Below the pieces are notes generated by a model. It did no database searches, was not told the origin of the DNA, and worked only from the letters and a program-made list of their open reading frames with translations. 64,000 nt of DNA from the NCBI GenBank assembly GCA_963680875.1, contig OY804580.1, forward strand, positions 92,223,353 to 92,287,352, written 5' to 3'. The position numbers and the translations under genes were made by a program. This document shows positions 1 to 50,640 of this stretch, in pieces. Position 1 is the first letter of the stretch. Every line of letters begins with the position of its first letter. The stretch comes from Bathymodiolus brooksi. Taxonomy: Eukaryota; Mollusca; Bivalvia; Mytilida; Modiolidae.

Positions 1-140
1 TCACAGTTCATTTTGTTCAATCTTTAGTTTTTTCTTCGGTAATGTTTTGCCAATCAATGATTGTGTTTTTGTCCTTTTTCTTGTAAGACATTCTTCAATT
101 TACAGGTTCTGATAACCCTTTGGTATTTTCAAACATCTTT
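1..140 (+). repeat. PLE-type 3'-end relic
   Basis: A member of a dispersed family with the pattern 'TCTTTAGTTTT ... TTTGTCCTTTTTCTT ... GATTACCCTTTGGTATCTTCAAACTCTTCTT'. I associate this string with the 3' UTR of molluscan Penelope-like elements; that link is from memory and not searched. Its right-arm partner is 33,480-33,620. Confidence 0.55.
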
Positions 141-1639
141 CATGAGTGTTTAACATCACGTAAAACAATATTTATGTTATCTCGTATCAAGCAAAAATAC
201 CACCCCCCAGAATAATTCCAAATCTAATAAAAGAATAGCAGAAACAGTGGCAACACACACATAACCGCTCAATTTTTCTGGTTTGGTGAAAGAACGTCGA
301 TAAAAAGTGGCGGAATGAAGCAAGCTTAATGTTTTCAAACCTCTTCTTTTTGTTAAATGAAGCTGTCCTGTGAATGTTTTTTTTGTTTGCATCTAAGTAA
401 AATACGATCTTTCACATATCACCGTGGCAGTGATAGCAAGGGTAGATGTTGGTAAAACTAATATTTTCTTACGAACACGACAGTGATAGCCCTTCACCCC
501 TTTTTTCTTTTAACTGTACGAATGTTGATCTAACATATGTGATTACGAAATCTAGATCAAATGCATGCATAATATAATAGAGCCTCAACAGGCGTTCTTG
601 AATGTTGCTGTCATATGATCTCAAGTCGACGAACTCTGACACACGTGTATATTTCATGCAGTGAATCATCAAAATGGTGATCATGGACAGTTAATAACAA
701 CTCCAAGAAAGGCTTTGTTTTTGTATAAGCTGCAATGACACATGTTATAGTAATTACCTATATCGGACAACATGGCGTTGAACCTACAACATGTGATGCG
801 AAAATTAAATCAAACATATAGGAACGAACGTAAAGTTGCAACAGGAATATCACAGATGATGTTGAACTGTCTTATGCTGGGACCTGAAACTGACGAAATA
901 TTTAAAATATTTTCAAACTTCTCTAGTCATAGATCATGAAATGAATCATCAAAATGGCGACAATAGTTTATGGTTGATACATATAATAATAAATCTCAAT
1001 AAGGCTTTGTTTTGATAACAATTGTAGTGATGGATGTCAACGCAGTTCCTTATGTTGGGCATGATGGCGTTGAACCTACGGCATGTCTGATTAACATCAC
1101 CTTCAATGCATGCTACATGTTCAATTAGTCTTATCTACTATTACTAATAGTAACATTGATTCCATAATTTATCAGTATAGAAATTGAGATACATGTGTAA
1201 CATCGCACGTTTCTAGTACCAACAACATTCGTTAAGCCTGTTTATAATAATGAACTCTATGATAATATTTACTACTTTTCTATAACTAGAAAGTGGTGAC
1301 TTGTCTATACTGCCCATTAACATATGGTTGTGATTGGACATTGATTAAATCAATTGTAAGTTTTCGATCGGTCCTTGTCACATGATCATGTGACGTCGAG
1401 TATCGCACATTGCATTGCGACGTATTGTGGTCGCCATTTTGCAATTGAAGTATTTAGGAAGGGGTAGATATATGTTCCCTTTGTATTTAAATAGACTAGC
1501 ATATAATGATATGTAAATGAAAATCTTAGAGCTGCGCATTTACTATACAACAGCTGCATTGTATTGCCACAACCGTACAGAGATTCCACATTTAAGATAA
1601 TAAATACCCATCAAATGAAAAACCAGTTTTATTATTTTG

Positions 1640-1800
1640 AGAAGAGATTGACGATACCAAAGCGGTAATCATAATCCGTATATCGAAGAAGAACATACAA
1701 CATAATGGCCAAAAGAAAAGGTACAAAAGGACAAACAACTATCTACAAAATATACAAATAAAGCTAATGATCGAGAATAACTTATGTGACAAAGACAATA
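1640..1800 (-). repeat. PLE-type 3'-end relic (left arm)
   Basis: Complement orientation of the family: GATACCAAAGCGGTAATCAT, then ATATCGAAGAAGAACATACA and GGACAAACAACTATCTACAA. Right-arm partner about 31,790-31,940. Confidence 0.55.
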
Positions 1801-3721
1801 TTGATGTTTTGTTTTAGAACAGATGTTACAAGTTGTTGCTAACGTGCAGGGATCATGATTTTCTCTATTCATGTATATGGACTACTGTAATAGTTTACAT
1901 GTCATGCAAAGCCATCGTATATCACTCTCTGGTTGCATGAGATCATATTCAAGCTAAAATAAACTATAATTCCTTCCTATTTCTATATCCCGGGTCATAT
2001 TATAAAATCAATTTTAGTAAAATTGTCATCCAGATTTGCTTTTCCACAAACATATTGTAGACATGAATTTAGTGTTAGAAAAATCGTAGATATCAAATTT
2101 AGTGCCCACGTATTTCAGAAATAACCTTCATCTTCACCTTCATCGGGTACGCTCAAAATTGAAAGATTGGAAAGCCAAATAATCTTAAGTCTTGGGAGCA
2201 ATAAAACCAAAGCACATAAGCTGGATAGACAAAATCGGCTAATATCACCTATGCATGTGGGAGTGTGTCATGATAAAACATAATTATGATGAAATATTCA
2301 TTCAGTGACACTGACAGTCTAGACATTATTCCATTTCAGTAGTTCCTTGGCGTGTTTGATAATTATGAAATGCTCTTTTGGGCTTAACGACATATAACTT
2401 TCTGTAATATGATTTTGCTATTGTTTTACAATGCAACCATTGTGTCTTTTTGTCCTGGGTTTGAGGGGTTGGGAGTATGGTGGTGGGATGTTGTGTGGTA
2501 TTGTCGGTCACTTTCAAATTCTAATTACATCATCGAAATCTTCGCACTTTCTTCTTTACTTTCAATGATACCCTTTGGTATCTTCAAGCTCTTCTTACTC
2601 CTTGCTTGAGCTTCTGTTTTTAACATTACACGGCGTTCCGCTAATGTGTGTCCTTCGAGTTCTCCAGTAGATATTTTCATAATTGTTTTATTGATTCCTT
2701 AGACAGATATCAATGTGTCTTGGTGTCATTTGTCATAAGACATATTATGGCTTTCGTTTGTCTTGTCTAAAATCCTATGATGTCGCTCATCCAATTTCGT
2801 AGACGAAATCGGTATCGCAAGTCTATTATTGAACTATTAATGAATCAGTGTATTTGTTAAAAGGCCATAATAGTTTATTATTAACAGACAGCCATCCGAA
2901 GCGTAATGGAAATATCATGGAAACAAAGGCAGTAAATTCGCTACCACTAATTCAGATAGTTCATACATGTATAATTCCGCACCCATAATTCTTTGATAAG
3001 AATGGTGTTGCTGTTTAGCATAACATCTACGCGATAGTAGGCATACTGCTCATCTATTGTGATATCATATAAGTATAATTTACTCCTTTTTAATTCACCT
3101 ATTGTTTTCAACATTATATGAAGTTTCACTAAGATGCTTGTTTCAAGCTCTCCCACAGTAGAATTACTTAAATATAACTAATACGATACAATGAAAACAC
3201 TTCTCCCTGTTGTTGAGGGGGTGGTGGTGCATTTTATCGCCTATACTCCAATGTATGTCTTCTGTATACCCTTTTAGAATCTTCACATTTTCTTGTAAAA
3301 TGTAATGAACTTAAATCATTAAACAAAATCATTTTATGTTCCGTCAAAGGAAAGACACAAGTAATACTGATTTTATCGTAGGCTAGGACGGTATGTTTTT
3401 TTAGAACAGTGAAGCATCTTGACATTTTCAACAGATCAAAGGGCCCCATATCTCTTTGATAAAACATATGCCTATTGTCTAGTATTACGTGGACTCACCA
3501 TGACGCTTACTGCTTACATCATGTAATATCACATTAATATTTTACTCCTTGTTATTGAGCTACTGTTTTTAACATTACATGAAGCTTCATTGATATGTTT
3601 GTTTCAAGTTCCGCAGTATAATTATTTTAATAACTTTAATGTTATTCTTATGGAGACTTCTGTGTCGCCAAGATTAAATATAGTATGTATAATGTTCAAA
3701 ATCATGGCGTTCTTCAAAATA

Positions 3722-3778
3722 ACGTTGTTCGCAGGGCTACATTACATGCGACGTTGTTCGCAGGGCTACATTACATGC
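3722..3778. repeat. 29-bp tandem duplication, left arm only
   Basis: The unit GCGACGTTGTTCGCAGGGCT plus ACATTACAT occurs twice back to back. The right arm at about 29,660-29,690 has a single copy, so the duplication happened after the arms or haplotypes diverged. Confidence 0.85.
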
Positions 3779-6700
3779 GAGGGTTGGAATTTTACTCACA
3801 TGTGGAAAACACCTACATGATCATATCATTTAATTAAGAGGGGAGTTTTTGGTCCTTAGTTTATTATCTAAGCCAGGAAATTGAGTTATCATGTGTTTGT
3901 GTATTAAGGGTATCGATTATTCCTCTTTCTACTATTTTAATATTTGATTTTGAAATTCTTCAGACAGTGAAGTATTTTGTGTTTTTCATTTGATTTCTAA
4001 TTATTTTATTGATTCGGTAGACTGATATACATTTTCCTTGAAGTGATTTGTCATATGACATACTATGGGTTTCTTACTCCTTGCTTGAGCTTCTGTTTTT
4101 AACATTACACGGCGTTCCGTTAATGTGTGTGCTTCGAGTTCTCCAGTAGATATTTTCATAATTGTTTTATTGATTCCTTAGACAGATGCAAATGTGTATT
4201 GGTGTCATTTGTCATAAGACATATCATGGCTTTCTTTTGTCTTGTCCAAAATCCGTTGATGCCGCTCATTCAAATTATGAGGCAAAATCGATATCGCAAG
4301 TCTATTATTCGAAACTTTGTTAATCAATTAGGGTATTTGGTGTAAAGCCATTATATAGTTTATATTTAACTTTCTAGCAAACCATCCTATGTAAACTTAC
4401 TCAAAATTAGTCCATTATTATACAGAAGAAATAATGTGTGACAAGATAGAACAGAAAAAGGTACTAATCAGATTGTATTAAATATAAGATAAAAATGGCG
4501 TTTGCTGTCTGATATCACAGCTATCCGGGATGAATTATACTGTACTCACCCTGTAATATATCATACATATGTTATCCCTTTTTATTAAGCTACTGTTTTC
4601 AACATTATATGAAGTTTCACTAGGGTGTTGGTTTCAAATAATTCAAATACGAAAATCAAATAAAATACTGATCAAAATATTATTAACGGTTAGTTGCGTT
4701 GTTTTCCTCAATGCAAAAATATATGTGCTTGATTTGTACAAAATAGCATTCAATTTTTTAATGTTTAATTTGAAACGTCATCAAAGAGGATTAATCAGTC
4801 CGGGACAGTTGCAATGGTTCCTTCCTGCCATGTAAGTCATTAAGCTTCAGCATCCAACAAAACATTCTCTGTGACGTTCTGATGATGGATTAATTCCCGT
4901 AAAAAGTAAGGCGGAAGTATATTTAGGCAGTATGGAATCGAAGCATACCACGAGATTTATACGAAAAAAGCGTGCACAAAAATAAACCGCTTTGTTTACA
5001 TTGTAACCGATTTTGGCATTGGAAGCCTTGTTATTATTATATATATTGGACACTATGTTCAGCCCATTGCTTATGTTATATTCATATTGACACAGCGTCT
5101 AGTGCCTGTGGCCTGACATACTGAACACATCATGTAATGTCATATATTTTTTTCACTCCTTTTTGTTAGCTACTGTTTTCAACATTACATATAGTTTCAA
5201 TAATATGTTTTTTGCTTAAGTTCCCCAGTAGCATTATTTTAATAACTCTGCTATTATACTTATGGATTAAATATATTAAGTATAATGTTCAAGATTATAA
5301 CGTTCTTTATTAGCCCGCATACATGTGAGGGTTGGCATCTTACTCACATGTGGAAAGTAAGTACATGACCACACCATTTCACTGAAAGGGGAGGTTTAAC
5401 TAGTTTATCCCCGTCATCTTTTCATTGAGGTGATTGTGCCAAGCCAGGAAAGTGATGGAACAAGTATTTGTGCATTTGTCTCTATATACGATTGTCATAT
5501 TTGATCTTAGAATTTCCACTCTAGTTTTAATTTTTTTTTCTTTTTCGTTTTATTTAAGGATTGATGGCAATTTTTGTTCGATTAATGAAAAAATAACCTC
5601 AATCAGGTTGTACACACCGTGTAACCAGCGTAGTAGGTTACACAAGAGCAAGGGTGTGGACAACATGATAGATGTTATTTCGAATGAACTGAACAAACAA
5701 TTTCGATCAATTCTGATAAATTAATTAAATTTTTTTGCTATGATATTGAAAAATATATTAGTTTTTTTCAAATTAAGACAAATAGTCGGAAATAAATTTA
5801 AATAACCCCAAAGGTGCCTCATTTAATGAAAATCGCCTTATGACAATGGCACGTGAGGCCTTGAGAACGTCGTCTATTTTCAGATATAGTACAGATGAAA
5901 ATAACCTCAACTTTATAACCCAATTAAGACAGGTATAAAATGACATGTGACTCTAAAATTAATTTATATCTAATTGTTTTATTGATTCCTAGGCGGATAT
6001 ATATTTTCCTTGACGTGAATTGTCATAAGACATAATATGGCTTTCGTTTGTCTTTTCTATTACCCTCGCATGTCGTTCATTTGATTTCTGAGAATGAATC
6101 GGTATTGCACGCCTATTACATGGATACTTGTTAATCAACTAGTTCAGTGTGGGTAAGATGATTTTAGATTATGTTCACTTGATGACATACCCTTACAAAT
6201 TACTCAAAATTGGTCCTGTGTTTAGCAGAGGATAGAAACGTGCGACGAAATCGAATTACAAGGTTATATTACAAACATTATTGCATCTTTATTTGATATA
6301 ATATCGATGTCAAGCTGTCCCAAGTTTCATTTTTCGTTGAATTCTTAATTTCGTGGATCAGCCTACCCACGAAAACCACGAAAATTGGTACCACACAAAT
6401 AAAAGTGATTTCACACTATTACACACAACTGAATATCGTGCAGTTGTCTGTTCATTATATATTTGCTGACAATCTTGAAGTTTTAACTATTTAATTACAT
6501 AGTTACGTCAATTTGTCCTTTGTATATTTTTAGGTGAGGCTGTCATATGTATTTGTGAATGTTGTTTACTCCATAGACGGATATACATTTTCCTAGACGT
6601 GATTTGTCATAAGACATAATATCATATGGGTTTCGCTGATGGCTTTCTTCCGATTTCTGATCCAAAGTCGGTATCGCAGGTCTATTATTTAACTACTTGT

Positions 6701-7424
6701 TAAGAAACAAGTAGCGCGGTTTGTGTAAAATAATTTTAGCTTTATACGCCCCCTTCGGGGCCTCGGCTCCATTATTTTTAAGGAATGGAGAGTTACTTGG
6801 ACATTCTCCTATACATAATGTATTTGGCCAAAGGGATTAAATACAGAGAGTTCGTCATTGTGTAAAAATGAATATGTGATGCAGTGTACCAATGGAGTAC
6901 GTTCATATTTCGTGGAGGATCAGAGCAAACAAACAAATGTCAACAAACACACTATAGAGGTGAATTTTGAGAAACACAATTGAATCAATTGACAATGACA
7001 AAGTCGCCAGTGACGTTCAATCCTGAAAATGATATAAATGTAAAATTGCAAATCTTTAATTTCACTTTTCTCGTAATAACTTCTATTTCATCAATGCGAA
7101 TATGTCAGCAGCATCAGCGCATAGAGTGTAGATATCACACTCCATTCATTTTTCTAAGACGTGTGGCCAGTACAGTCATGTTTTCCAACAGAGTGCAGCT
7201 GCTGACACATCAGAGCTTCTCAATGTGATTTGTAACAGGACATACGACATACTATGGCTTTCTTTTTTCTTTTTCTAAAATGCACTGATGTCGTTCATTC
7301 AATTTCTGAGAAAAAATCGGTATAGCACTCCTATTATGTGCATACTTGTTAACCAAATAACGCATTGTTGGTAAGATAATTGTTACATATATTCACTTTT
7401 TGACATACCTTCATATCTAAACAA

Positions 7425-7525
7425 GGTACCGGTTGGTTGAATGCGTTAGGTAGATGCATTACCTAACAACTCATGCAAGCATATCACCAATATGGCGTTA
7501 AAACACCAAAAATACAAATAAAATC
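7425..7525 (+). mobile_element. Internally deleted SINE (left arm)
   Basis: A tRNA-like head (GGTTGGTTGAATGCGTTAGG, then ACAACTCATGCAAGC and CACCAATATGGCGT) is joined directly to the tail end GTTAAAACACC. The body is missing. The join lies at a shared 'GGCGT'. The right-arm partner is at about 25,590-25,685. Confidence 0.65.
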
Positions 7526-7670
7526 AAATCATATCTAAACTTAATCAAAATTGGTCGTGTGCTTTTCAGAGGAGAGATACATGCGACAAAATTAAAAGGA
7601 AATGAGATTGTACTACAGACATTAGTGGACATCTCTTTGATATAAATGGATTTCATTTGATTTATTTTGT

Positions 7671-7870
7671 TTAACGCCACTTTCAGCAATATTTCAGCTA
7701 TATCATGGCGACCAGTTTTAGTGGTGGAAGAAGCAGGAGAGCACCATCAACCACGGGCAAGCAACTGCCCAACTGGTAAACTTTATCACTTGCGGCTGCG
7801 AGTCGAGCGCACCCTTTTTGTAATTTACAAAGCCGGACGCGAACCATTGTCGTATTCGCGGTAGGCTTCT
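7671..7870 (-). mobile_element. SINE (left arm)
   Basis: On the plus strand it begins with the complement of the tail (TTTAACGCCACTTTCAGCAA) and continues through the body (CTTTATCACTTGCGGCTGCG) to a partial tRNA-like head ending near 7,870. Its right-arm partner is at 25,225-25,430. Confidence 0.75.
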
Positions 7871-8094
7871 ATGGAGATAAATTGAAGTAATTATGATAAT
7901 CATCAAAATTTCATATCGCTATGGTAACTAGAAATATGAATATGCATGTAAATATTTGTTAAGCATACACACAGTTGGAAAAATTTCAAAGCGTAATCAA
8001 GATATCGTAGAAACAGAGGTAAAATCGAACCTACGAACATAAACATACATGACCGCTTATGTTCCTGACTTGGAATATGTACTTTAATGAAATA

Positions 8095-8260
8095 TATGAC
8101 GGGTGTCACTAGTGGGGCAGGAACTGCATAACCTTTCGGAGAACATGAGTTCACTATCGGTTTTTAAAGGAGTTCATGTTGCTCGATCTTTAGTTTGCTA
8201 TGTAGTGTCTGTTTTTCTTAAATATACCGTTAGCATCTCTAATCTCTTCTTAAGCCTTCT
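8095..8260 (+). repeat. PLE-type 3'-end relic (left arm)
   Basis: It begins with CACTAGTGGGGCAGGAACTG, then CCTTTCGGAGAACATGAG and GTTGCTCGATCTTTAG. This is the longer form of the family with the 'GGAACTG..TA.CCTTTCGGA' start seen in the 12.5-kb PLE relic. Right-arm partner about 24,835-24,995. Confidence 0.6.
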
Positions 8261-8999
8261 CGCTGAGTAAAATGCTAACTCACAGATGGTAATTATGCAA
8301 TCAGAATGTGATGCTAAAGTATAATTTGTTATCTTTACAAAAAATGAATAATTTACTTCTGTAAAAGAATATTTTTTGCTGCATTCATTGTTATGATTTG
8401 TGCTTCCAAGAAACATATTGTAGATACCAATTAAGTGTGTCATGTAATTTCCTTTGGCTTTTTCTCTCAGTATGTTTGGTTTTTGTTTTACAACAAAAAT
8501 TTGGATGTCAGGTCTGTATAAATAAATATAAGACAAAGCCGAAGTATCTATCAAGAAAGGACAATCTAGAGACACAGGTAGCGTTGGACACAAGATAAAG
8601 AAGGGATACAAGCAAGACGGAAAGCTACAATACAAAAAATTACAACGACGATTAGCAAGGACCACACAAAAATAGCTTGAGACGCAGTTGATATATAATT
8701 GAATGTTATGCTGAATTTGAAGACTTGGAACACTCTGTAATTAGACGTGAAATCCCAACGACAAATCCTACATCTATGTATTACATATAGCTGCTAATCA
8801 TGTAGTTGTATGTTCATTATCAGATATATCTGCTGACAATCTTGATGTTTTAACTATTTAATTACATTATTACGTCAATTTGTAATTGGTATATTACTGG
8901 GTGATGGGTGGGACTGTCAAATGTACTTGTACATGGAGATAATCTAAGAACCATTTCATAATTAACTATTTAACGACGTGAGTCACGAGCGAGAGAGAG

Positions 9000-9160
9000 T
9001 GATGATGATTTCGTGTTACTCGATCTTTAGTTTTATGTGCATGTTTTGTAGATCGTTGTTTGTCCCTTTGCACTTGTTCTTTTGGCCAGTGTGTTGTCTG
9101 TTCTTCTTCGATATACTTATTATGATTACCCATTTGATATCTTGAAACTCTTCTTGCATT
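9000..9160 (+). repeat. PLE-type 3'-end relic (left arm)
   Basis: It reads GTTACTCGATCTTTAGTTTT, CTTTTGGCCAGTGTGTTGTC and TTACCCATTTGATATCTTGA. Right-arm partner about 23,905-24,050. Confidence 0.55.
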
Positions 9161-9447
9161 GTTCATTCCATAGACGAATATACATTTTCCTTGACGTGAT
9201 TTGTCATAAGACATAATATCATATGGGTTTCGCTGATGGCTTTTTTTCCGATTTCAGATCCAAAGTCGGTATCGCATGTCTGTTATTTAACTACTTGTTA
9301 AGAAACAAGTAGCGCGGTTTGTGTAAAATCATTTTAGCTTATATTCACTTTACGTCAATTTGTCATTAGTATATTCTTGGGTGATGGGTGGGGCGGTCAA
9401 ATGTATTTGTGAATGGCGATCATCTAATTCCCATGTCATAATTAACC

Positions 9448-9520
9448 GATAAAACTGACCGCCACGATATAACTGAAATATTGTTGAAAGTAGCATCAAA
9501 CACCATCAAACAAACAAACA
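9448..9520 (+). mobile_element. SINE tail remnant (left arm)
   Basis: Only the tail is left (AAAACTGACCGCCACGATAT, then TGAAAGTAGCATC and CAAACAAACAAACA). The right-arm partner at 23,150-23,290 keeps more of the element, so this copy was shortened by the event that removed about 0.4 kb here. Confidence 0.65.
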
Positions 9521-11649
9521 AGCATTTTCATGTTGGAATGTCTTACTGAATAAACATACGTACAGCCAGCTTAGTGATAATGTACAATATCAGAGCTATA
9601 ATATTACGGTAAATTCGGAGTCGTTTTCCTCCAAATCTGTTTTCGATGTATTCTTATACATCTTATAATATCAACCTAACCAGGAAGTGTTAAAACAGGT
9701 ATGTCGTATGAACACATTTGGTGTTCGAGATAAACGGACATGTACATGAATAAATACTACAAATTATAATAAAAGGAGATCATTTACACAATATAAAGAT
9801 CAATTTGTATAAAAAATGAACATGAAAGAGTTAATACACAACATTAAACCACAAATAAAACACTGTCATTGGTAATAACTAATCCATTAGCCCTACAGAG
9901 ACTTGCCGAAATATCGCGAAAACTTATATAACCTCCACATCATTCGAAAACTTTTTAAAAATTTTGAACACCAAAAGACATTTTAGTCAATGCTTTAGCT
10001 GTAAAAAATGAGGTACACAATGTGCATCATAAACATATTAATAAGCCATAAATAATGCGCAAAGATCTACAAATTACAAAAATAAGATGGAGTTATTTAC
10101 AATACAATTTGCACAAAATATTACAAGATAATTTATCCATCGCAGCATATGCAGGTGATGGACCTTATCCGACAGATTCTACCTAGTAGTCAGTTACATA
10201 TGAATATTCATTAACCCTGTTATTGTACTGCCCATCCTCCTGTTGGCATTCATTTTTATAATAGGACGTGTTTTTTTGAGTGGAAGCGAATACGTGCAGA
10301 TTTTTTATCGTTTATATATATATATAACTGTAAATCCAGTTATTAACGGGAGTGTTATCCTAATAAACTGTTTAGCCCCGTCACATTGGTGTATCTGTCC
10401 CAACGTCATATGCAGTGGTCTCTTTTTTATGTTCAGTGAGTTAATATGGCAGGTGGTTGTTCATTTTTATAGATATTGGTGGAATTGTTGACCATCACAC
10501 ATTTCTACAATAAGCCGGGAACGATAAACTTATTGTAGAACATTTTTGTGTAGATATACATTCAGTGGTTTATTTAAGCATGTTTTGATTATACGAGTAA
10601 CATGTCGGGTGCATTATAAGAGACAGGAACTGCTTCTGAGCTCCGTGTTGAGATGCCCGTTACGATGTTCGCATATAAACGATATTCCGTTCGTCTTTAC
10701 CTCCAGTTGTTAATGTCTTATTTACGTTATTTGTGTTTGTGGTGTCCTACCCATATTTTGTTGGGTTTTTTTGTGAGGTTTTTTTCTTCGTCTTATGTTG
10801 CCGTTTTCTCTGGATTGTCCATTTTTGATTTCCTCATCAGTATTCTCTAAGATTTATTTTAAAGCTAACTGTACTGAGAAGAAACGAAAGCATAATGAGT
10901 GGCATAAGGACATACACACAATTGTAAAGTCATGTTGCCATGCAACAAGAATATGTGTTTTTGTTCTCACACAAACTGCAATACATTTAAATTGACACTC
11001 GATGTTTTCGGACTGAAAATGCGTTACATTTTGTTTTTATTATACACCAGGAACAGAAACTTCATATATTTCCTGAATCAGTGTATGGTTATTACTTGGG
11101 TGAGACGAATGCAATATTTATTTTATGTGATTGCGTGTTATGAATAAACATCATATAAGACGTATATTTTAAAATTCGAATTAAGATTGCTGCCCAATTA
11201 ACTGAAAGTAACTAGAATGTATATACTAATGTCATACATTTCAATAAAAGTCTAATATACTCACCTTATGGGATTACGTGACAGAGTATTACATAGACTT
11301 TGAAGCTATGTTTTTATTTTATGGATGTGGCCGATGGGAAATAAGTGGTTCATCAGTATGCTAAAAGAATCAATGCAATTGCGTAACAGCGAAGTATGTC
11401 CATATGTTGCTGAGGACAGAACAAGAATAAAAACATATACCAACTGAAAACACAACTCTGACACTATCAAATAAATAAGCTCACACTGAGCACTGACGAA
11501 ATTGTCAGGGGAGTTCATGCCCTAAAACATAATGTAAAAGCAATATTACAAATTATGAATTGATGTTAGTGTCTGGAAAACTTCTTTGTCGGCACATGTG
11601 ACCAAAATAAAATGAAAACGCAATCCATGCAATATCTTTACTGAGCTCA

Positions 11650-11880
11650 TCCCATATTTTGTTGGTTTCGTGTTACTCTATCTTTAATTTTCAATATAAT
11701 GTTTTGCATGTTATTACCTGGTTTGTCCTTTCTCCTTTGTCCTTGCTTTATCAGTCCTTCCTCGATATACGCATTCTGATTACCCTCTTGGTATTTTCAA
11801 TATTTTCTTGTAGATCATTGTGTGTACTTTGTCCTTTTTATGTTAGTTATTGTTTTGTCTCTCTTTGGTAACTTTCAGCT
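11650..11880 (+). repeat. PLE-type 3'-end relic (left arm), empty PLE site
   Basis: It reads CATATTTTGTTGGTTTCGTG, ACTCTATCTTTAATTTTCAA and CTCTTGGTATTTTCAATATT. At its end, around 11,870-11,885, lies the unoccupied equivalent of the right-arm site carrying PLE copy 1. The right-arm partner (20,812-21,020) is therefore separated from its continuation by that element. Confidence 0.65.
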
Positions 11881-12024
11881 TTTCATACTGTTTTAATATA
11901 CAATTACTATCACGAGACAGCTTTATATTTGCAAGATGCAATGTATGATATCGGATGTTGGATTTTCTTTCCTGTTCATATGGAAATTATTGTAAGTCAA
12001 TTATAATATTGTGTAATTGTTTAG

Positions 12025-23149: not shown

Positions 23150-23290
23150 AAATGTCTGTTTGTTTGATCGTGTTTGATGCCACTTTCAACAATATGTCAG
23201 TTATATCGTGGCGGTCAGTTTTATTGGTGGAGGAAAACGGAGTATTCGGAGAAAACCACCGACCTGTCTCAAGACACTGACAAATTTTAG
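23150..23290 (-). mobile_element. SINE tail and body (right arm)
   Basis: On the plus strand: GATGCCACTTTCAACAATAT, then TTTTATTGGTGGAGGAAAAC and ACCGACCTGTCTCAAGACAC. It keeps about 65 bp more of the element than the left-arm partner. Confidence 0.65.
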
Positions 23291-23607
23291 CTTGAAAACC
23301 AACCGCGACGATACCTTGTCACGTAATCACTTAAGATGATGCCACAGGTAAACATTGTACTTGTGAGTAATTTTAACATGAGCTACCAATTAAATATATC
23401 CATTTTCTTCTAAATCTATCATATATTTCATCGCCAAATTTATGAATTACATATGAAAAAAAATGATCAACGTAAATTAAAAGAACACGTAAATCATCTG
23501 CAAGATAGACAAAACAGCACATGTGAAAAATATATGACAGCCAGTTCACTACAATACCACGTGTTTCAAACACAACACTCTTTCATTCCTGGCTCACGTC
23601 GTGAAAT
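23227..23607. repeat. 0.4-kb segment present only in the right arm, copy 1
   Basis: It starts with the inner part of a SINE and continues with a unit beginning CTTGAAAACCAACCGCGACG, containing ACAGCACATGTGAAAAATAT and ending at CGTGAAATAGTTAATTATG. The left arm goes straight from the SINE tail to the TTAATTATG-equivalent at 9,448. It is related to copy 2 at 26,290. Confidence 0.7.
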
Positions 23608-23904
23608 AGTTAATTATGAAATGGGAAGTAGATGATCGCCATTGACAAATACATTTGACAGCCCCACCCATCATCACCCAAGAATATACTAATGACAAAT
23701 TGACGTAAAGTGAATATAAGCTAAAATGATTTTACACAAACCGCGCTACTTGTTTCTTAGCAAGTAGTTAAATAATAGACATGCGATATCGACTTTGGGT
23801 CAGCAATCGGCAAATAGCAATCAGCGAAACCCATATGATATGTCTTATGACAAATCACGTCAAGGAAAATGTATATTCGTCTATGGAGTGAACAATGCAA
23901 GAAG

Positions 23905-24050
23905 AATTTCAAGATATCAAATGGGTAATCATAATAAGCATATCGAAGAAGAACAAACAAGACACTGGCCAAAAGAACAAGTGCAAAGGGTCAAACAACG
24001 ATCTACAAAGCATGCAGGTAAAACAAAAGATCGAGTAACACGAAATCATC
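23905..24050 (-). repeat. PLE-type 3'-end relic (right arm)
   Basis: Complement partner of 9,000-9,160 (TTTCAAGATATCAAATGGGT, AACACTGGCC-like segment, AAAGATCGAGTAACACG). Confidence 0.55.
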
Positions 24051-24834
24051 ATCACTCTCTCTCGCTCGTGACTCACGTCGTTAAATAGTTAATTATGAGA
24101 TGGTTCTTAGATTATCTCCATGTACAAGTACATTTGACAGCCCCAACCATCACCCAGTAATATACCAATTACAAATTGACGTAACAATGTAATTAAATAG
24201 TTAAAACATCAAGATTGTCATCTGATATATCGAATAATGAACATACAACTACATGATTAACAGCTATGTGTAATACATAGATGTAGGATTTGTCGTTGAG
24301 ATTTCAGGTCTAATTACAGAGAGTTCCAAGACTTCAAATTCAGCATAGCATTCAATTATATATCAACTGCGTCTCAAGCTATTTTTGTGTGGTCCTTGCT
24401 AATCGTCGTTGCAATTTTTTTGTGTAGTAGCTTTCAGTCTTGCTTGTATCCCTTCTTTATCTTGTGTCCAACGCTACCTGTGTCTCTAGATTGTCCATTC
24501 TTGATAGCTACTTCGGCTTTGTCTTATATTTATTTATACAGAACTGACATCCGAATTGTTGTTGTAAAACAAAAACAAAGCATACTGAGAGAAAAAGCCA
24601 AAGAACTTACATGACACACTTAATTCGTATCTACAATATGTTTCTTGGAAACACAAAGCATAACAATGAATGCAGCAAAAATTATTCTTGTACAGAAGTA
24701 AATTATTCATTTTTTGTAAAGATAAAAAAATATACGTTAGCGTGACATTTTGATTGCATAATTACCATCTGTGAGTTAGCATTTTACTCAGTGAGAAGGT
24801 TTAAGAAGAGATTAGAGATGCTAACGGAATATTT

Positions 24835-24995
24835 AAGAAAAACAGACACCCTAAAGAAAAGACAAAAGGACAAACAACTATCCACAAACACTACATAGCA
24901 AACTAAAGATCGAGCAACATGAACTCCTCTAAAAACCGATAGTGAACTCATGTGCTCCGAAAGGTTATGCAGTTCCTGCCCCACTAGTGACACCC
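24835..24995 (-). repeat. PLE-type 3'-end relic (right arm)
   Basis: Complement partner of 8,095-8,260, with ATCGAGCAACATGAACTCC and CCGAAAGGTTATGCAGTTCC. Confidence 0.6.
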
Positions 24996-25224
24996 GTCAT
25001 ATATTTCATTAAAGTACATATTCCAAGTCAGGAACATAAGCGGTCATGTATGTTTATATTCGTAGGTTCGATTTTACCTCTGTTTCTACGATATCTTGAT
25101 TACGCTTTGGAATTTTTCCAACAGTGTGTATTCTTAACAAATATTCACATGCATATTCATATTTCTAGTTACCATAGCGATATGAAAGTTTGATGATTAC
25201 CATAATTACTTCAATTTATCTCCA

Positions 25225-25430
25225 TACAAGCCTACCACGAATACGACAATGGTTCGCGTCCGGCTTTGTAAATTACAAAAAGGGTGCGCTCGACTCGCAG
25301 CCGCAAGTGATAAAGTTTACCAGTTTGGCAGTTGCTTGTCCGTGGTTGGTGGTGCTCTCCTGCTTCTTCCACCACTAAAACTGGTCGCCATGATATAGCT
25401 GAAATATTGCTGAAAGTGGCGTTAAACAAA
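25225..25430 (+). mobile_element. SINE (right arm copy)
   Basis: Inverted-repeat partner of 7,671-7,870: head remnant, body (CGACTCGCAGCCGCAAGTG) and tail ending TGAAAGTGGCGTTAAAC. Confidence 0.75.
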
Positions 25431-25589
25431 ATAAATCAAATGAAGTCCATTTATCTCAAAGAGATGTCCACTAGTGTCTGTAGTACAATCTCATTTCCTT
25501 TTAATTTTGTCGCATGTATCTCTCCTCTGAAAAGCACACGACCAATTTTGATTAAGTTTAGATATGATTTTATTTTATTTGTATTTTTG

Positions 25590-25685
25590 GTGTTTTAACG
25601 CCATATTGGTGATATGCTTGCATGAGTTGTTAGGTAATGCATCTACCTAACGGATTCAGCCACCCGGTACCTTTTTTAGATATGA
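25590..25685 (-). mobile_element. Internally deleted SINE (right arm copy)
   Basis: Partner of 7,425-7,525 with the same head-to-tail join (GTGTTTTAACGCCATATTGG), so the deletion is older than the split between the arms. Confidence 0.65.
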
Positions 25686-26289
25686 AGGTATGTCAAAAAG
25701 TGAATATATGTAACAATTATCTTACCAACAATGCGTAATTTGATTAACAAGTATGCACATAATAGGAGTGCTATACCGATTTATTCTCAGAAATTGAATG
25801 AACGACATCAGTGCATTTTAGAAAAGGACAAAATAAAGCCATAGTACGTCGTATGTCCTGTTACAAATCACATTGAGAAGCTCTGCTGTGTCAGCAGCTG
25901 CACTCTGTTGGAAAACATGACTGTACTGGCCACACGTCTTAGAAAAAATGATTGGGGTGTGATATCTACACTCTATGCGCTGATTCTGCTGACATATTCT
26001 CATTGATGAAATAGAAGTTATTACGAGAATAGTGAAATTAAAGATTTGCAATTTTACATTGATATCATTTTCAGGATTAAACTGCACTGGCGACTTTGTC
26101 ATTGTCAATTGATTCAATTGTGTTTCTCAATATTCACCTCTATAGTGTGTTTGTTGACATTTGTTTGTTTGCTCTGACCCTCCACGAAATATGAACGTAC
26201 TCCATTGGTACACTGCATCACATATTCATTTTTACACAATGACGAACTCTCTGTATTTGATCCCTTTGGCCAAATACACTATATATATA

Positions 26290-26715
26290 ATAGCTTCAAA
26301 ACCAACAGCGACGATACCTTGTCACGTAATCACGTAAGATGGTACCACAGGCAAACATTTTACTTGTGAATAATTTTAACATGTGCTCCAATTAAATATA
26401 TACATTGTTGCTTTATCTAAATACAGTATATATTTCTTTCCCTAATATACAAATTATATATGACAGAAAACGATGAAATATAAATTAAAAGAACACATAA
26501 ATCATATACAAGATAGACAAAACAGCACCTGTGAAAAATATCTGACAGCCAGTTCACTACAATACCACATGTTTCAAACATTATCCCATTTCTCTCGTGG
26601 CCCCCGTCGTGAAATAGTTAATTATGACATGGGCAGTAGATGATCTCCATTCACAAATGCATTTGACAGCCTCATCAATCACCCTAGAATATAATAATAA
26701 CACATTTACGTAGAG
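26290..26715. repeat. 0.4-kb segment present only in the right arm, copy 2
   Basis: It shares the same unit as 23,285-23,607: CTTCAAAACCAACAGCGACG, then ACAGCACCTGTGAAAAATAT and CGTGAAATAGTTAATTATG, diverged by clearly more than the arms differ from each other. The left-arm equivalent (about 6,741-6,815) lacks it and instead has about 70 bp of unrelated GC-rich sequence (CGCCCCCTTCGGGGCCTCGG). Confidence 0.7.
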
Positions 26716-29700
26716 TGAATATAGGCTAAAATGATTTTACACAAACCGCGCTACTTGTTTCTTAGCAAGTAGTTAAATGATAGACCTGCGATACCGACTT
26801 TAGGTCTGAAATCGGAAGAAAACCATCAGCGAAGCCCATATGATATTATGTCTTATGACAAATCACGCCTAGGAAAATGTATATCCGTCTATGGAGTAAA
26901 CAACATTCACAAATACATATGACAGCCTCACCTAAAAATATACTAAGGACAAATTGACGTAACTATGTAATGAAATAGTTAAAAGATTGTCAGCAAATAT
27001 ATAATGAACTACACGATCATCAGTTGTGTGTAATAGTGTGAAATCACTTTTATTTGTGTGTTACCAATTTTCGTGGTTTTCGTGGGTAGACTGATCCACG
27101 AAATTAAGAGTTCAACGAACAATGAAACTTGGGAAGCAGTTTGACATCGATATTATATCAAATAAAGATTCAATAGTGTTTGTAATATAACCTTGTAATT
27201 CGATTTCGTCGCACATTTCTATCTTCTGCAAAACACAGGACCAATTTGAGTAATTTGTAAGGGTATGTCATCAAGTGAACATAATCTAAAATCAATCTTA
27301 CCCACAATGAACTAGTTGATTAACAAGTATCCATGTAATAAGCGTTCAATACCGATTCATTCTCAGAAATCAAATGAACGACATGAGAGGGTTTTAGAAA
27401 AGACAAAAGAAAGCCATATTATGTCTTATGACAAGTCACGTCAAAGAAAATGTATATCCGTCTAGGAATCAATAAAACAATTAGATATAAATTAATTTTA
27501 GAGTCACATGTCATTTTATACCTGTCTTGATTGGGTTATAAAGTTGAGGTTATTTTCATCTGTACTGAATCTGAAAATAGACGTCGTTCTCAAGGCCTCA
27601 CGTGCCATTGTCATAAGGCGATTTTCTTCAAATGAGGCACCTTTGGGGTTATTTAAATTTATTTCCGACTATTTGCCTTATTTTGAACAAAATAAATAAA
27701 ATGTTCAATATCATAGCAAAAATTTGAATTAATTTATCAGAATTGATCGAAATTATTTGTTCAGTTCATTCGAAATAACCTCTATCATGTTGTCCACACC
27801 CTTGCTCTTGCGTTACCTACTACGCTGATTACACGGTGTGTACAACCTGATTGAGGTTATTTCTTCATGAACCGAACAAAAATTGCGATCAATCCTTAAA
27901 TAAAACGAAAAAGAAAAACATATCACACTAGAGTGGAAATTCTAAGATCAAATATGACAATCGTATATAGAGGCAAATGCTCAAATACATGTTCCATCAC
28001 TTTCCTAGCTTTGCACAATCACTTCAATGAAAAGATGGTGGGGATAAACTAGTTAAACCTCTCCTTTCAGTGAAATGATGTGGTCATGTACTTACTTTCC
28101 ACATGTGAGTAAGATGCCAACCCTCACATATAAGCGAGCTAATAAAGAACGTTATAATCTTGAACATTATACCTAATATATTTAATCCATAAGTATAATA
28201 GTAGAGTTATTCAAATAATGCTACTGGGGAACTTACACAAAAACATATTATTGAAACTATAAGTAATGTTGAAAACAGTAGCTCAAAAAAAAGGAGTGAA
28301 AAGAATATAAGACATTACATGATGTGATCAGTATGTCAGGCCACAGCCACTAGACGTTGTGTCAATATGAATATAACATAAGCAATGGGCAGAACATAGT
28401 GTCTAATATATATAATAATAACAAGGCTTCCAATGCCAAAATCGGTTACAATGTAAACAAAGCGGTTTATTTGATTTATTCGTGTAAATCTCGTGGTATG
28501 CTTCGATTCCATACTACCCAAATATACTTCCGCCTTACTTGTTACGGAAATTAATCCATCATCAGAGCGTCACAGATAATGTTTTGTTGGATGCTGAAGT
28601 TTAATGACTTACATGGCAGGAAGGAGCCATTGCAACTGTCCCGGACTGAATAATTCCCTTTGATGACGTTTCAAATTAAACATTAACAAATTGAATGCTA
28701 TTTTGTACAAATCAAACACATATATTTTTGCATTGAGGAAAACAACACAACTAACCGTTAATAATATTTTGATCAGTATTTTATTTGATTTTCGTATTTG
28801 AATTATTTGAAACCAACACCCTAGTGAAACTTCATATAATGTTGAAAACAGTAGCTTAATAAAAAGGGATAACATATGTATGATATATTACAGGGTGAGT
28901 ACAGTATGATTCATCCCGGATAGCTGTGATATCAGACAGCAAACGCCATTTTTATCTTATATTTAATACAATCTGATTAGTACCTTTTTCTGTTCTATCT
29001 TGTCACACATTATTTCTTCTGTACAATAGTGGACTAATTTTGAGTAAGTTTACATAGGATGGTCTTCTAGAAAGTTAAATATAAACTATATAATGGCTTT
29101 ACACCAAATACCCTAATTGATTAACAAAGTTTCGAATAATAGACTTGCGATATCGAATTTGCCTCATAATTTGAATGAGCGGCATCAACGGATTTTGGAC
29201 AAGACAAAAGAAAGCCATAGTATGTCGTTTGACAAATGACACCAAGACACATTTATATCTGTCTAAGGAATCAATAAAACAATTATGAAAATATCTACTG
29301 GAGAACTCGAAGCACACACATTAAGGGAACGCCATGCAATGTTAAAACAGAAGCTCAAGCAAGGAGTAAGAAAACCATAGTATGTCATATGACAAATCAC
29401 TTCAAGGAAAATGTATATCAGTCTAACGAATCAATAAAATAATTAGAAATCAAATGAAAAACATAAAATACTTCACTGTCAGAAGAATTTCAAAATCAAA
29501 TATCAAAATAGTAGAAAGAGGAATAATCGATACCCTTAATACACAAACACATGATAACCCAATTTCCTGGCTTAAATAATAAACCAAGGACCAAAAACTC
29601 CCCTCTTAATTAAATGATATGATCATGTAAGTGTTTTCCACATGTGAGTAAAATTCCAACCAACATGTAATGTAGCCCTGCGAACAACGTTATTATGAAG

Positions 29701-30884
29701 AACCCCATGATTTTGAACATTATACATACTATATTTAATCTTGGCGACACAGAAGTCTCCATAAGAATAACATTAAAATTATTAAAATAATTATACTGCG
29801 GAACTTCAAACAAACATCAATGAAGCTTCATGTAATGTTAAAAACAGTAGCTCAATAACAAGGAGTAAAATATTAATGTGATATTACATGATGTAAGCAG
29901 TAAGGGTCATGGCGAGTCCACGAAATACTAGACAGTAAGCATATGTTTTATCAAAGAAATATGGGTCCCTTTGATCTGTTGAAAATGTCAAAATGCTTCA
30001 CTGTTCTAAAAAACATGCCGTCCTAGCCTACGATAAAATCAGTATTACTTGTGTCTTTCCTTTGACGGAACATAAAATGATTGTGTTTAATGATTTAAGT
30101 TCATTACAATTTACAAGAAAATGTGAAGATTCTAAAAGGGTATACAGAAGACATACATTGGGGTATAGGCGATAAAATGCACCACCACCCCCTCAACAGC
30201 AGGGAGAAGTGTTTTCATTGTATCGTATTAGTTCTATTTAAGTAATTCTACTGGGGAGAGCTTGAAACAAGCATCTTAGTGAAACTTCATATAATGTTGA
30301 AATCACTAACTGAATCAAAAAGGAGTACATTATACTTATATCACAATAGATGAGCAGTATACCTACTATCGCGTAGATGTTATGCTAAACAGCAAACACC
30401 ATTCTTATCAAAGAATTATGGGTGCAGATGTCAACATTCTTTTCTATTTTGAATAAAAATGTAATTGTTACTTCTTGTAACGATAAAATATGAGGGAATT
30501 ATACATGTATGAACTATCTGAATTAGTGGTAGCGAATTTACTGCCTTTGTTTCCATGATATTTCCATTACGCTTCAGATGGCTGTCTGTTAATAATAAAC
30601 TATTATGGCCTTTCAACAAATACACTGATTCATTAATAGTTCAATAATAGACTTGCAATACCGATTTCGTCTACGAAATTGGATGAGCGACATCATAGGA
30701 TTTTAGACAAGACAAACGAAAGCCATAATATGTCTTATGACAAATGACACCAAGACACATTGATATCTGTCTAAGGAATCAATAAAACAATTATGAAAAT
30801 ATTTACTGGAGAGCTCGAAGCACACACATTAGCGGAACGCCGTGTAATGTTAAAAACAGAATCTCAAGCAAGGAGTAAGAAGAG

Positions 30885-31015
30885 TTTGAAGATACCAAAT
30901 GGGAATCATAATCCGTAAATCGAAGAACAGACAACACAGTGGCCAACAGAAAAAAGTCAAAAGGACAAACAACGATCTCGAGACATACACATAAAACTAA
31001 AGATAGTGTAAGATA
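30885..31015 (-). repeat. PLE-type 3'-end relic, deleted from the left arm
   Basis: It reads GAAGATACCAAATGGGAATC, GTGGCCAACAGAAAAAAGTC and ACACATAAAACTAAAGATAG. The left arm near 2,565-2,590 lacks about 130 bp of this segment. Confidence 0.55.
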
Positions 31016-31789
31016 TTGAAAGTAATGAAGAAAGCGCGAAGATTTCGATGATGTAATTAGAATTTGAAAGTGACCGACAATACCACACAACATCCCACCA
31101 CCATACTCCCAACCCCTCAAAACCAGGACAAAAATACACACAGTGGTTGCATTGTAAAACAACAGCAAAATCATATTACAGAAAGTTATAGGTCGTTAAG
31201 CCCAAAAGAGCATTTCATAGTTATCAAACACGCCAAGGAACTACTGACATGAAATAATGTTTAGACTGTCAGTGTCACTGAATGAATATTTCATCATAGT
31301 TTCATTTTATCATGACACCCCCTCCCCCCTCCCCACATGCATAAGGGATATTAGCCGATTTTGTCTATCCAGCTTAGGTGCTTTGGTTTTATTGCTCCCA
31401 AGACTTTATTTGGCTTTCCAATCTTTCAATTTTGAGCGTACCCGATGAAGGTTATTCCTGAAATACGTGGGCACTTAATTTGATATCTACGATTTTTCTA
31501 ACACTAAATTCATGTCTACAATATGTTTGTGGAAAAGCAAATCTGGATGACAATTTTACTAAAATTGATTTTACAATATGACCCGGGATATAGAAATAGG
31601 AAGGAATTATAGTTTCCTTTAGTTTGAATAAGATCTCATGCAACCAGAGAGTGATATACGATGGCTTTGCATGACATGTAAACTATTACAGTAGTCCATA
31701 TACATGAATAGAGAAAATCATGATCCCTGCACGTTAGCAACAACTTGTAACATCTGTCCTAAAACAAAATATCAATATTGTCTTTGTCA

Positions 31790-31940
31790 GATCAGTTATT
31801 CTCGATCTTTAGCTTTATGTGTATGTTTGTAGATAGTTGTTTGTCCTTTTGTACCTTTTCTTTTGGCCATTATGTTGTATGTTCTTCTTCGATATACGGA
31901 TTATGATTACCGCTTTGGTATTGTCAATCTCTTTTCAAAA
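31790..31940 (+). repeat. PLE-type 3'-end relic (right arm)
   Basis: Partner of 1,640-1,800: TCTCGATCTTTAGCTTTATG, then TTTTGGCCATTATGTTGTAT and TTACCGCTTTGGTATTGTCA. Confidence 0.55.
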
Positions 31941-33479
31941 TAACAAAACTGGTTTCTCATTTGATGGTAATTTATTATCTTAAATGTGGAATCGCTGTAC
32001 GGTTGTGGCAATACAATGCAGCTGTTGTATAGTAAATGCGCAGCTCTAAGATTTTCATTTATATATCATTATATGCTAGTTCTATTTAAATACAAGGGGA
32101 ACATATATCTATCCCTTCCTAAATACTTCAATTGCAAGATGGCGACCATAATACGTCGCAATGCAATGTGCGATACTCGACGTCACATGATCATGTGACA
32201 AGGACCGAACGAAAACTTACAATTTATTTAATCAATATCCAATCACAACCATATGTTAATGGACAGGATAGACAAGTCACCACATGCTAGTTATAGAGAA
32301 GTAGTTTAATTATGATAAATATTATCATAGAGTTCATTATTATAAACAGGCTTAACGGATGTTGTTGGTACTAGAAACGTGCGTAATTCTATTGATGGAC
32401 AGTAGGCTCTGCATGTGTCCATCGTGCAATGTTACACATGTATCTCAATTTCTATACTGATAAACTATGGAATCAATGTTACTATTAGTAATAGTAGATA
32501 AGACTAATTGAACATGTAGCATGCATTGAAGGTGATGTTAATCAGACATGGCGTAGGTTCAACGCCATCATGCCCAACATAAGGAACTGCGTTGGCATCC
32601 ATCACTACAATTGTTATCAAAACAAAGCCTTATTGAGATATATTATTATATGTATCAACCATAAACTATTGTCGCCATTTTGATGATTCATTTCATGATC
32701 TATGACTAGAGAAGTTTGAAAATATTTCAAATATTTCGTCAATTTCAGGTCCCAACATCGTCTGTGATATTCCTGTTGCAACTTTGTGATCGTTCCTTTA
32801 TGTTTGACTTAATTTTAGCATCACATGTTGTAGGTTCAACGCCATGTTGTCCGATATAGGTAATTACTATAACATGTGTCATTGCAGCTTATACAAAAAC
32901 AAAGCCTTTCTTGGAGTTGTTATTAAATGTCCATGATCACCATTTTGATGATTCACTGCATGAAATATACACGTGTGTCAGAGTTCGTCGACTTGAGATC
33001 ATATGACAGCAACATTCAAGAACGCCTGTTGAGCCTCTATTATCTTCTGCATGCATTTGATCTAGATTTCGTAATCACATATGTTAGATCAACATTCGTA
33101 CAGTTAAAAGAAAAAAGGGGTGAAGGGCTATCACTGTCGTGTTCGTAAGAAAATATTAGTTTTACTAACATCTACCCTTGCTAACACTGCCACGGTGATA
33201 TGTGAAAGATCGTATTTTACTTAGATGCAAACAAAAAAGAACATTCACAGGACAGCTTCATTTTACAAAAAGAAGAGGTTTGAAAACATTAAGCTTGTTT
33301 CATTCCGCCACTTTTTATCGACGTTCTTGCATCAAACCAGAAAAATTGAGCAGTCATGTGTGTGTTGCCACTGTTTCTGCTATTCTTTTATTAGATTTGG
33401 AATTATTCTTGAGAGGGGGGGTATTTTTGCTTGTTACGAGATAGCATAAATATTGTTTTACGTGATGTTAAACACTCAC

Positions 33480-33620
33480 CGAAAATGTTTGAAAATACCA
33501 AAGGGTAATCAGAACCTGTAAATTGAAGAATGTCTTACAAGAAAAAGGACAAAAACACAATCATTGATTGGCAAAACATTACCCAAGAAAAAACTAAAGA
33601 TTGAACAAAATGAATTGTGA
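33480..33620 (-). repeat. PLE-type 3'-end relic at the visible end of the right arm
   Basis: Complement partner of 1-140 (GAAAATACCAAAGGGTAATC, AAAAACTAAAGATTGAAC). The sequence continues to the right with the usual upstream part of this family (33,640-33,680: TCAATTCCTGTTCCACTAGT), whose mirror would lie left of the window. Confidence 0.6.
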
Positions 33621-38319: not shown

Positions 38320-38321
38320 CA

Positions 38322-50630: not shown

Positions 50631-50640
50631 GGCTGTAATT

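What the first reader, a model, noticed from the sequence alone, without database searches (positions are those of the whole stretch)
1..33620. Giant inverted repeat with arms of about 13 and 17 kb around a 3.8-kb spacer
Over a dozen anchor pairs in perfect reverse order show that the first half of the window is one palindrome, cut by the window's left edge. Arms differ by a few percent plus indels (2.9 kb, two of about 0.4 kb, about 130 bp, 29 bp). That is too different for a read-level fold-back artefact. It fits either an inverted duplication of moderate age or two haplotypes of a highly heterozygous genome joined head to head. If real, it would be a large palindrome without gene content.
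Basis: partly seen in the sequence, partly recalled or inferred. Interest (0 to 1): 0.8.

Follow-up and report, generated by a model that had tools for sequence, protein, structure and literature searches.

The report
Alternating inverted-repeat array in a bivalve
The mirror-image DNA in this window is one slice of a real, multi-copy array of large repeats that alternate in direction on a bivalve chromosome, and its odd off-centre gap is the scar of a deletion that cut out the middle of an older, fuller palindrome.

Summary
The inverted repeat is real: 12.98 kb of arm aligns at about 96% identity with 48 indels. It is a slice of something larger. In the 2.0-Gb own assembly (no N in the 284 kb read here) the arms run to about -33.4 and +69.7 kb. 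This palindrome (P1) alternates with a second one (P2) in direct units of about 178 kb. P1 and P2 arms both differ by 4.7%; the one pair of adjacent units compared, by 0.6%.

Six P1 centres were found on contig C6. Three carry the window's exact joint. Three are intact: after the window's 3.8-kb spacer comes 1 kb of core, an inverted spacer copy, then the other arm. So the window's asymmetry is a 6.76-kb central deletion at TGGG microhomology, later multiplied. The core also lies in the P2 centre, and contig C1 holds the linear order arm-spacer-core-other arm. P1 and P2 thus look like complementary inverted junctions of one ancestral site.

"Two haplotypes joined head to head" does not explain three identical joints beside three intact versions. 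Reads were not available; false duplication of some units is not excluded. No gene was recognised in the ORFs scanned. Retroelement relatives point to a bivalve, probably a mytilid. New variant of a known kind.

The parts
1..12977 (+). Inner part of the left arm of palindrome P1 (continues upstream of the window to about -33.4 kb)
12811..13106 (+). SINE (12819-13098; tRNA-type by recalled likeness) with 8-bp target-site duplication AGAGGAAC at 12811-12818 and 13099-13106: this side looks like an undisturbed insertion, so 12977 is not a breakpoint
12978..16791 (+). Apparent spacer: one half (S) of the original palindrome centre; its inverted partner S' is missing from this copy. Contains a broken LINE-like element (by recalled resemblance of translated pieces, no profile search)
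16791..16796 (.). Deletion joint: 6.76 kb (end of S, core, S', half of the right SINE) missing relative to the intact copy at C6:91.21 Mb; 4-bp microhomology TGGG (16792-16795), fifth base T as on the left flank
16792..64000 (-). Right arm of P1 (homology to the left arm continues to about +69.7 kb, outside the window), starting with a truncated SINE (16792-16946)
17911..20811 (-). 5'-truncated Penelope-like retroelement, right arm only (2.9-kb indel); its reading frame is interrupted. The matching right-arm stretch of the intact 91.21-Mb copy carries it too
23229..23610 (.). 382 bp absent from the left arm at 9444/9445; a related direct repeat in the right arm (23288-23895 against 26291-26903, 85%) keeps most of this stretch, so the left arm probably lost it
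26288..26724 (.). About 0.4 kb present in the right arm where the left arm has 69 bp of other sequence (6741-6809)
41887..42880 (-). Second fragment of the same Penelope-like family, 99.1% identical to 17902-18895

Best explanation
A real segmental-duplication array. Ancestral linear order: X (P1 arm) - S (spacer) - c (1-kb core) - Y (P2 arm), still seen on contig C1. On C6 the DNA was copied back on itself at c, giving X-S-c-S'-X' (P1) and Y'-c-Y (P2), so the segment between successive c's alternates in direction. The two orientations drifted to 4.7% apart with no clear sign of homogenisation between arms. The P2+P1 pair was later tandemly amplified (0.6% between the two adjacent units compared). 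In one unit the centre of P1 lost 6.76 kb at TGGG microhomology. That removed S' and c, left S alone as an apparent 3.8-kb spacer, and was copied into two more units (0.10-0.20% apart). Shown: alternation in the 284 kb read, two divergence levels, intact and deleted centres, shared core, linear order on C1, microhomology. Inferred: that C1 keeps the ancestral order, that the inversion was a fold-back or template switch at c, that amplification was by unequal exchange, and that all units exist in the animal.
For: Own genome: 6 full-length spacer copies on C6, 91.21-92.41 Mb, at 99-100%. A 1701-bp query across the joint matches full length at 3 places. At 3 others its spacer part stops at the joint and the right-arm part resumes about 6.7 kb on, with an inverted spacer end between. 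Alignment of the six: three have the joint, three continue into other sequence. Intact copy at 91.21 Mb: bases 1-5118 match window 11699-16796 (99.0%), 11873-18761 match window 16792-23725 (98.5%, same strand), and the stretch between holds core and S'. P1 arms 0.0467 substitutions/site over 37.3 kb, P2 arms 0.0466 over 22.9 kb, one pair of adjacent units 0.0059 over 72.3 kb. P1 core matches the P2 centre over 639 bp at 95%, and again one unit on. C1 holds X-S-c-Y in one linear run. Deletion-bearing copies differ by 0.10-0.20%, and from intact copies by 0.55-0.80%. No N in 264 kb and 20 kb more.
Against: No reads or depth, so copy number and order rest on one assembly. The six centres are not evenly spaced (215, 184, 447, 182, 178 kb); the 447-kb interval was not read, so regular alternation is shown only for the 284 kb read. 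Blocks of adjacent units vary: 16.9 kb of the next left arm matches at 97.7% against a mean of 99.1%. One stretch is doubled at 99.95%, perhaps a false duplication. The intact centre still has a 1.0-kb loop and arms 91-96% alike, so cruciform extrusion is not obviously favoured; an ordinary microhomology deletion would do. Any microhomology of the original inversion is no longer readable. The fifth base at the deletion (T against C) leaves 4 or 5 bp.
Confidence: 0.85

Rival explanations
1. Two haplotypes of a highly heterozygous genome were joined head to head by the assembler.
For: Bivalves are very heterozygous: about 3%, and 3.57% in another individual, in Pinctada fucata (passages); 1.73% in Mytilus galloprovincialis (passages); many large indels between haplotypes. 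PacBio palindromic artefacts of 7-17 kb are reported (passages), and fold-back reads in 0.55-0.6% of nanopore genomic reads (passages).
Against: The same joint is present at 3 places and the intact version at 3 others on one contig. No N. Arms are 4.0-4.7% apart while same-direction units are 0.6% apart. In the intact copy the two sides of the joint share only TGGG, too little to mislead an assembler.
Confidence: 0.04
2. The alternating structure is real, but the number of units is inflated by false duplication (both haplotypes of fewer units placed one after another on C6). Compatible with the main explanation apart from copy number.
For: The two units compared differ by 0.6%, inside the range of allelic difference; one stretch is 99.95% doubled.
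Against: Three intact and three deleted centres are interleaved along 1.2 Mb; units differ by indels, for instance about 8 kb of P2 missing from the next unit; no gaps in 284 kb.
Confidence: 0.15
3. The window's joint is itself a primary fold-back with a 3.8-kb loop, and the copies with the longer centre are derived from it.
For: Loop length and 4-bp inverted microhomology resemble human fold-back duplications (spacer median 3,428 bp, 2-8 bp microhomology, passages).
Against: The longer centre holds an inverted copy of the spacer diverged much like the arms (0.033-0.035 substitutions/site), and the C1 relative has c directly after S. A simple insertion would not create these.
Confidence: 0.05
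4. A giant mobile element with long terminal inverted repeats.
For: Long inverted arms and transposon genes inside.
Against: The domains found belong to separate retroelements and a recombinase. Near-identical copies of the spacer and joint were listed only on C6, with one 84-92% relative on C1 and weaker 71-84% pieces elsewhere (candidate lists capped).
Confidence: 0.02

Closest known systems
Fold-back inverted duplications of the human genome (Hermetz et al. 2014, PMC3907307; passages read)
   Same: Inverted copies separated by an unduplicated loop, usually of a few kb, with short inverted microhomology at junctions.
   Different: Here both complementary junctions (X-c-X' and Y'-c-Y) are kept in one array and amplified; not terminal, not a de novo disease allele; original microhomology unreadable.
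Central-deletion revision of palindromes in mice and transgene concatemers (reviewed in PMC8701086; passages, its section 3 read)
   Same: An asymmetric deletion at the centre moves the axis and leaves a longer spacer; intact and revised forms both known.
   Different: Natural chromosome; the intact form already has a 1-kb loop and 91-96% arms; 6.76-kb deletion, apparently one event then copied.
Ampliconic palindromes of mammalian sex chromosomes (PMC3723533 and PMC11168930, seen only as search listings with abstract starts)
   Same: Multi-copy inverted and direct segmental duplications of tens of kilobases.
   Different: Y palindromes exceed 99.9% arm identity through gene conversion (abstract start); these arms stay 4.7% apart, and no gene was recognised.
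ODIRA, template switching giving hairpin-capped extrachromosomal DNA and inverted copy-number variants (PMC10766183, title and abstract start only)
   Same: Would give inverted repeats through a template switch and an extrachromosomal intermediate.
   Different: Only a possible mechanism here; no origin or intermediate tested.

Membership tests
Head-to-head haplotype join (assembly artefact) | Joint unique to one place in the assembly | tested here: not met
   3 full-length matches across the joint
Head-to-head haplotype join (assembly artefact) | Both arms at half read depth | not testable with these tools
   no reads held
Palindromic / ampliconic segmental duplication | Inverted arms over 10 kb at over 90% identity within a multi-copy cluster | tested here: met
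   P1 37.3 kb aligned at 92.6%, P2 22.9 kb at 93.0%, one pair of units 99.1%; 6 centres
Palindromic / ampliconic segmental duplication | Arm-to-arm homogenisation by gene conversion, as on the human Y | tested here: not met
   inner arms 4.0% apart, 250-bp counts near random (variance/mean 1.22; 9.3% of 1000 shuffles reach it); arms 4.7% against units 0.6%
Fold-back inverted duplication | Unduplicated loop between inverted arms | tested here: met
   1,002 bp between the inverted arms in the intact centre
Fold-back inverted duplication | Inverted microhomology at the original junction | not tested
   arms diverged 4-5% since; no pre-event sequence of the same lineage
Asymmetric central deletion of a palindrome | Deletion offset from the axis, joined at microhomology, intact sister form known | tested here: met
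   6.76 kb removed: 0.36 kb left of the original loop, the 1.0-kb loop, and 5.4 kb on its right; TGGG; 3 intact sisters
Asymmetric central deletion of a palindrome | Initiated by cruciform or hairpin cutting | not testable with these tools
   needs experiment

The most novel reading that the evidence does not exclude
P1 and P2 arose together from one event: an excised circle of the roughly 88-kb module (c-Y...X) replicated into an inverted dimer by turning back at c, then reinserted and amplified as a 178-kb unit. That would explain why the same core sits in both kinds of centre and why the module flips at every c. The array would be a preserved natural record of inverted-dimer amplification in an animal germ line, with its palindrome centres now being trimmed.
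Probability: 0.2. Interest if true: 0.72.

Novelty: new variant of a known kind. Interest (0 to 1): 0.5.

Why it matters
Large palindromes are usually seen after gene conversion or assembly collapse has erased their history. Here one genome appears to show the linear order (on C1), both complementary inverted junctions, the intact centre and the centre-deleted form, with divergence levels that put the steps in order. That would let formation, amplification and central trimming of palindromes be studied in an animal outside mammals, and it shows that 4-5% arm divergence in a bivalve assembly need not mean joined haplotypes.

Tried and rejected
Haplotype join, primary fold-back at 16,791 and giant mobile element: see rivals. 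Before the genome could be reached I leaned on indirect signs (uniform divergence, SINE target-site duplication, no repeat of the spacer end elsewhere in the window). They were suggestive only and are superseded.

Led nowhere: RNA families (none); Pfam on the seven window ORFs of 150 aa or more at E 0.001 (none); PDB by sequence for the retroelement ORF (none) and for the 196-aa ORF (none); a viral-contig scan for an arm 29-mer (none). An ORF across the joint searched against proteins gave 92 hits; I did not inspect them one by one, and the SINE half of the query makes them inconclusive. An arm ORF found a 98% relative, a cluster of 30 members on short public contigs; under a simple coalescent this fits both alleles and paralogues (reasoning, not a call), so I drew nothing from it. 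The 196-aa ORF in the P2 arms looked like an exon, but dN 0.074 against dS 0.063 and stops in P1-arm copies give no sign of constraint. Species: inferred only from retroelement relatives.

Full report
1. Observation. The arm alignment has 12,867 aligned sites with 550 mismatches; without one replaced block of about 70 bp, 512 of 12,793 (4.0%). Mismatch counts in 250-bp windows are close to random (variance/mean 1.22; 9.3% of 1000 shuffles reach this), so there are no clear conversion tracts. Of 48 indels, 23 have the left arm shorter (3,965 bp) and 25 the right (113 bp).

2. Where it is. The own-genome search answered on its ninth try: G000 has 2.0 Gb in 136 contigs and the window is C6:92,223,353-92,287,352. 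I read 100 kb on each side: 264 kb without N, and a further 20 kb downstream without N. In window coordinates P1 inverted matches form one chain of 22 blocks (300 bp or more, 85% or more) from -33,402/69,719 to 12,977/16,792: 37.3 kb aligned, mean identity 92.6%, 0.0467 substitutions per site. A second palindrome P2 runs from the edge of what I read (-100.0 kb) to -35.3 kb with its centre between -71.0 and -62.8 kb: 9 blocks, 22.9 kb, 93.0%, 0.0466 per site. The stretch from -100 to -11 kb recurs in direct order at +77.9 to +164 kb: 9 blocks, 72.3 of 89 kb, 99.1%, 0.0059 per site, with gaps such as about 8 kb of P2 missing from the second copy. The next left arm then follows (16.9 kb at 97.7%). 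So in what was read a direct unit of about 178 kb holds P2 then P1, and direction alternates.

3. Six centres. The spacer (window 13,200-16,700) has 6 full-length copies at 99-100%, all on C6, all on the + strand, from 91.208 to 92.414 Mb, spaced 215, 184, 447, 182 and 178 kb; 55 matches were listed, only 40 of 4,434 candidates being scored, so counts are lower bounds. The 447-kb interval was not read. A 1,701-bp query across the joint (window 16,200-17,900) matches full length at 3 places: own, 91.610 and 92.417 Mb. Its right-arm part alone is at 4 more places, its left-arm counterpart (minus strand, 96%) at 6, its spacer part ending at the joint at 3 (91.211, 91.426, 92.058 Mb), and an inverted 91% spacer end at 4 (43 matches listed, 40 of 11,150 candidates scored). 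The last parts of the six spacer loci, aligned together, are nearly identical up to TTTAAATCTGGGT; there three go on into the inverted SINE (the joint) and three continue into other sequence.

4. The intact centre. Three loci (L006, L010, L031) give 20,107 contiguous bases at C6:91,206,727. Bases 1-5118 match window 11,699-16,796 (99.0%). Bases 11,873-18,761 match window 16,792-23,725 on the same strand (98.5%). Between them lie a core and an inverted spacer copy S' (91.6-96.2% to S), with 1,002 bp between the inverted arms. The window copy lacks 6.76 kb of this (11,873 minus 5,114). The other two intact loci match this copy to the ends of what is held of them (98.0-98.8%; one has a break of about 60 bp in the SINE). 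Both deletion ends read TGGG; the following base is T on the left flank and in the window, C on the right flank of the 91.21 copy. The SINE at window 12,819-13,098 has an 8-bp target-site duplication, so the left edge of the spacer is not a break; only 16,791/16,792 is.

5. Order of events. In the spacer region (about 5.1 kb; 3.7 kb for L008) the three deletion-bearing copies differ by 0.10-0.20%, intact copies by 0.70-0.85% from each other and 0.55-0.80% from the deleted ones; the inverted partner of the 91.21 copy is 3.3-3.5% from all six. The inversion is therefore older than the unit amplification, and the deletion is recent and was multiplied. The Penelope-like insertion of the right arm lies in the matching right arm of the intact 91.21-Mb copy too, so it probably predates the amplification.

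6. Origin of the inversion. The P1 core (intact-copy bases 5465-6102) matches the P2 centre (-70,789 to -70,152) at 95%, 639 bp, and again one unit on. On contig C1 the order is arm X (105.934 Mb, 92%), S (105.935-105.943 Mb, 84-91% in pieces), core (85-91%), then P2 arm Y (86-92%), in one linear run. Within the 10 kb of C1 read, the only inverted repeat of 60 bp or more is a self-complementary stretch of about 134 bp, lying where Y begins; its half is also found at the P2 right arm edge. The simplest reading is that C1 shows the state before inversion, and that copying turned back at c. The loop (c, 1.0 kb) fits the fold-back class: human spacers 766-70,466 bp, median 3,428 bp (PMC3907307, passages). 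This step is inferred; a derived origin of the C1 copy is not excluded.

7. Why the centre was lost. In mice and concatemers, palindrome centres are trimmed by asymmetric deletions that stabilise them (PMC8701086, its section 3). The window copy has this anatomy. Because the intact centre still has a 1-kb loop, an ordinary microhomology deletion without cruciform is as possible.

8. Assembly doubt. No reads are held. Bivalve heterozygosity of 1.7 to 3.6% (PMC7653742, PMC9646362; passages) is below the 4.0-4.7% arm divergence but above the 0.6% unit divergence, so some units might be haplotype copies. One 8.25-kb stretch at 91.24 Mb is 99.95% identical to one 21.4 kb before it. Neither affects the inversion itself, the deletion, or the shared core.

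9. Content. 35 Pfam queries covered 31 distinct ORFs, not all of the 98 ORFs of 110 aa or more in the 264 kb. Above curated cut-offs: DUF3504 at 48.8-49.2 kb, reverse transcriptase (two ORFs) and GIY-YIG, RVT_3. Below cut-offs: reverse transcriptase for the window's Penelope-like ORFs (relatives with GIY-YIG ahead of it), phage-integrase type in two P2 ORFs, and stray weak hits (PAM2, Peptidase_S49, DUF726, Semenogelin, DUF2172, KH). The P2-centre element is DIRS-like (name recalled). Spliced genes with short exons could be missed.

10. Organism. Named relatives of the retroelement ORF are Pinctada imbricata and a MAG of a Lucinoma symbiont, and contigs of two symbiont-type MAGs, one from Bathymodiolus septemdierum, with 96% DNA identity over 519 bp to the latter. 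A bivalve, probably a mytilid: inference.

11. Novelty. A search for the terms segmental duplication, palindromes, bivalve and ampliconic (at least 3 of 4) gave 32 papers; none of the 8 listed holds the word bivalve. That is no proof of absence in print.

Noticed in passing
window 49939-50061: Perfect 55-nt inverted repeat with a 13-nt loop next to a DUF3504 (tyrosine-recombinase type, recalled) coding remnant at about 48.5-50.4 kb; looks like a small recent fold-back.
   Followed up: partly
window 48051-48233: Inverted repeat with 90-nt arms, 91% complementary, 3-nt loop.
   Followed up: no
window 17911-20811 and 41887-42880: Penelope-like elements of a young family: 99.1% identical fragments; relatives carry GIY-YIG ahead of the reverse transcriptase; a 98% relative stands for a cluster of 3,599 member sequences.
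   Followed up: partly
L014 1546-5778 (window coordinate about -68.5 to -64.2 kb): DIRS-like retroelement (reverse transcriptase, RVT_3 and weak integrase-type pieces; name recalled) in the P2 centre, in tandem duplicate one unit on.
   Followed up: partly
C6:91,218,582-91,226,833 and 91,240,000-91,248,252: 99.95% identical direct copies 21.4 kb apart: very recent duplication or assembly duplication.
   Followed up: no
L034 2722-2855 (C1:105,944,722-105,944,855): Self-complementary stretch of about 134 bp at the point where arm Y begins in the linear copy; half of it lies at the P2 right arm edge. A candidate turning point.
   Followed up: partly
L011 4835-5422 (window coordinate -95.2 kb): 196-aa open frame kept in the four P2 arms read, dN/dS about 1.2 between the two orientations, broken in P1 arms; no family found.
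   Followed up: partly
L001, L002: Bivalve-type retroelement sequence inside two public bacterial symbiont-type genome bins: probably host contamination of the bins.
   Followed up: no
window 52165-52335: CAAT tetranucleotide array, 42.8 copies.
   Followed up: no
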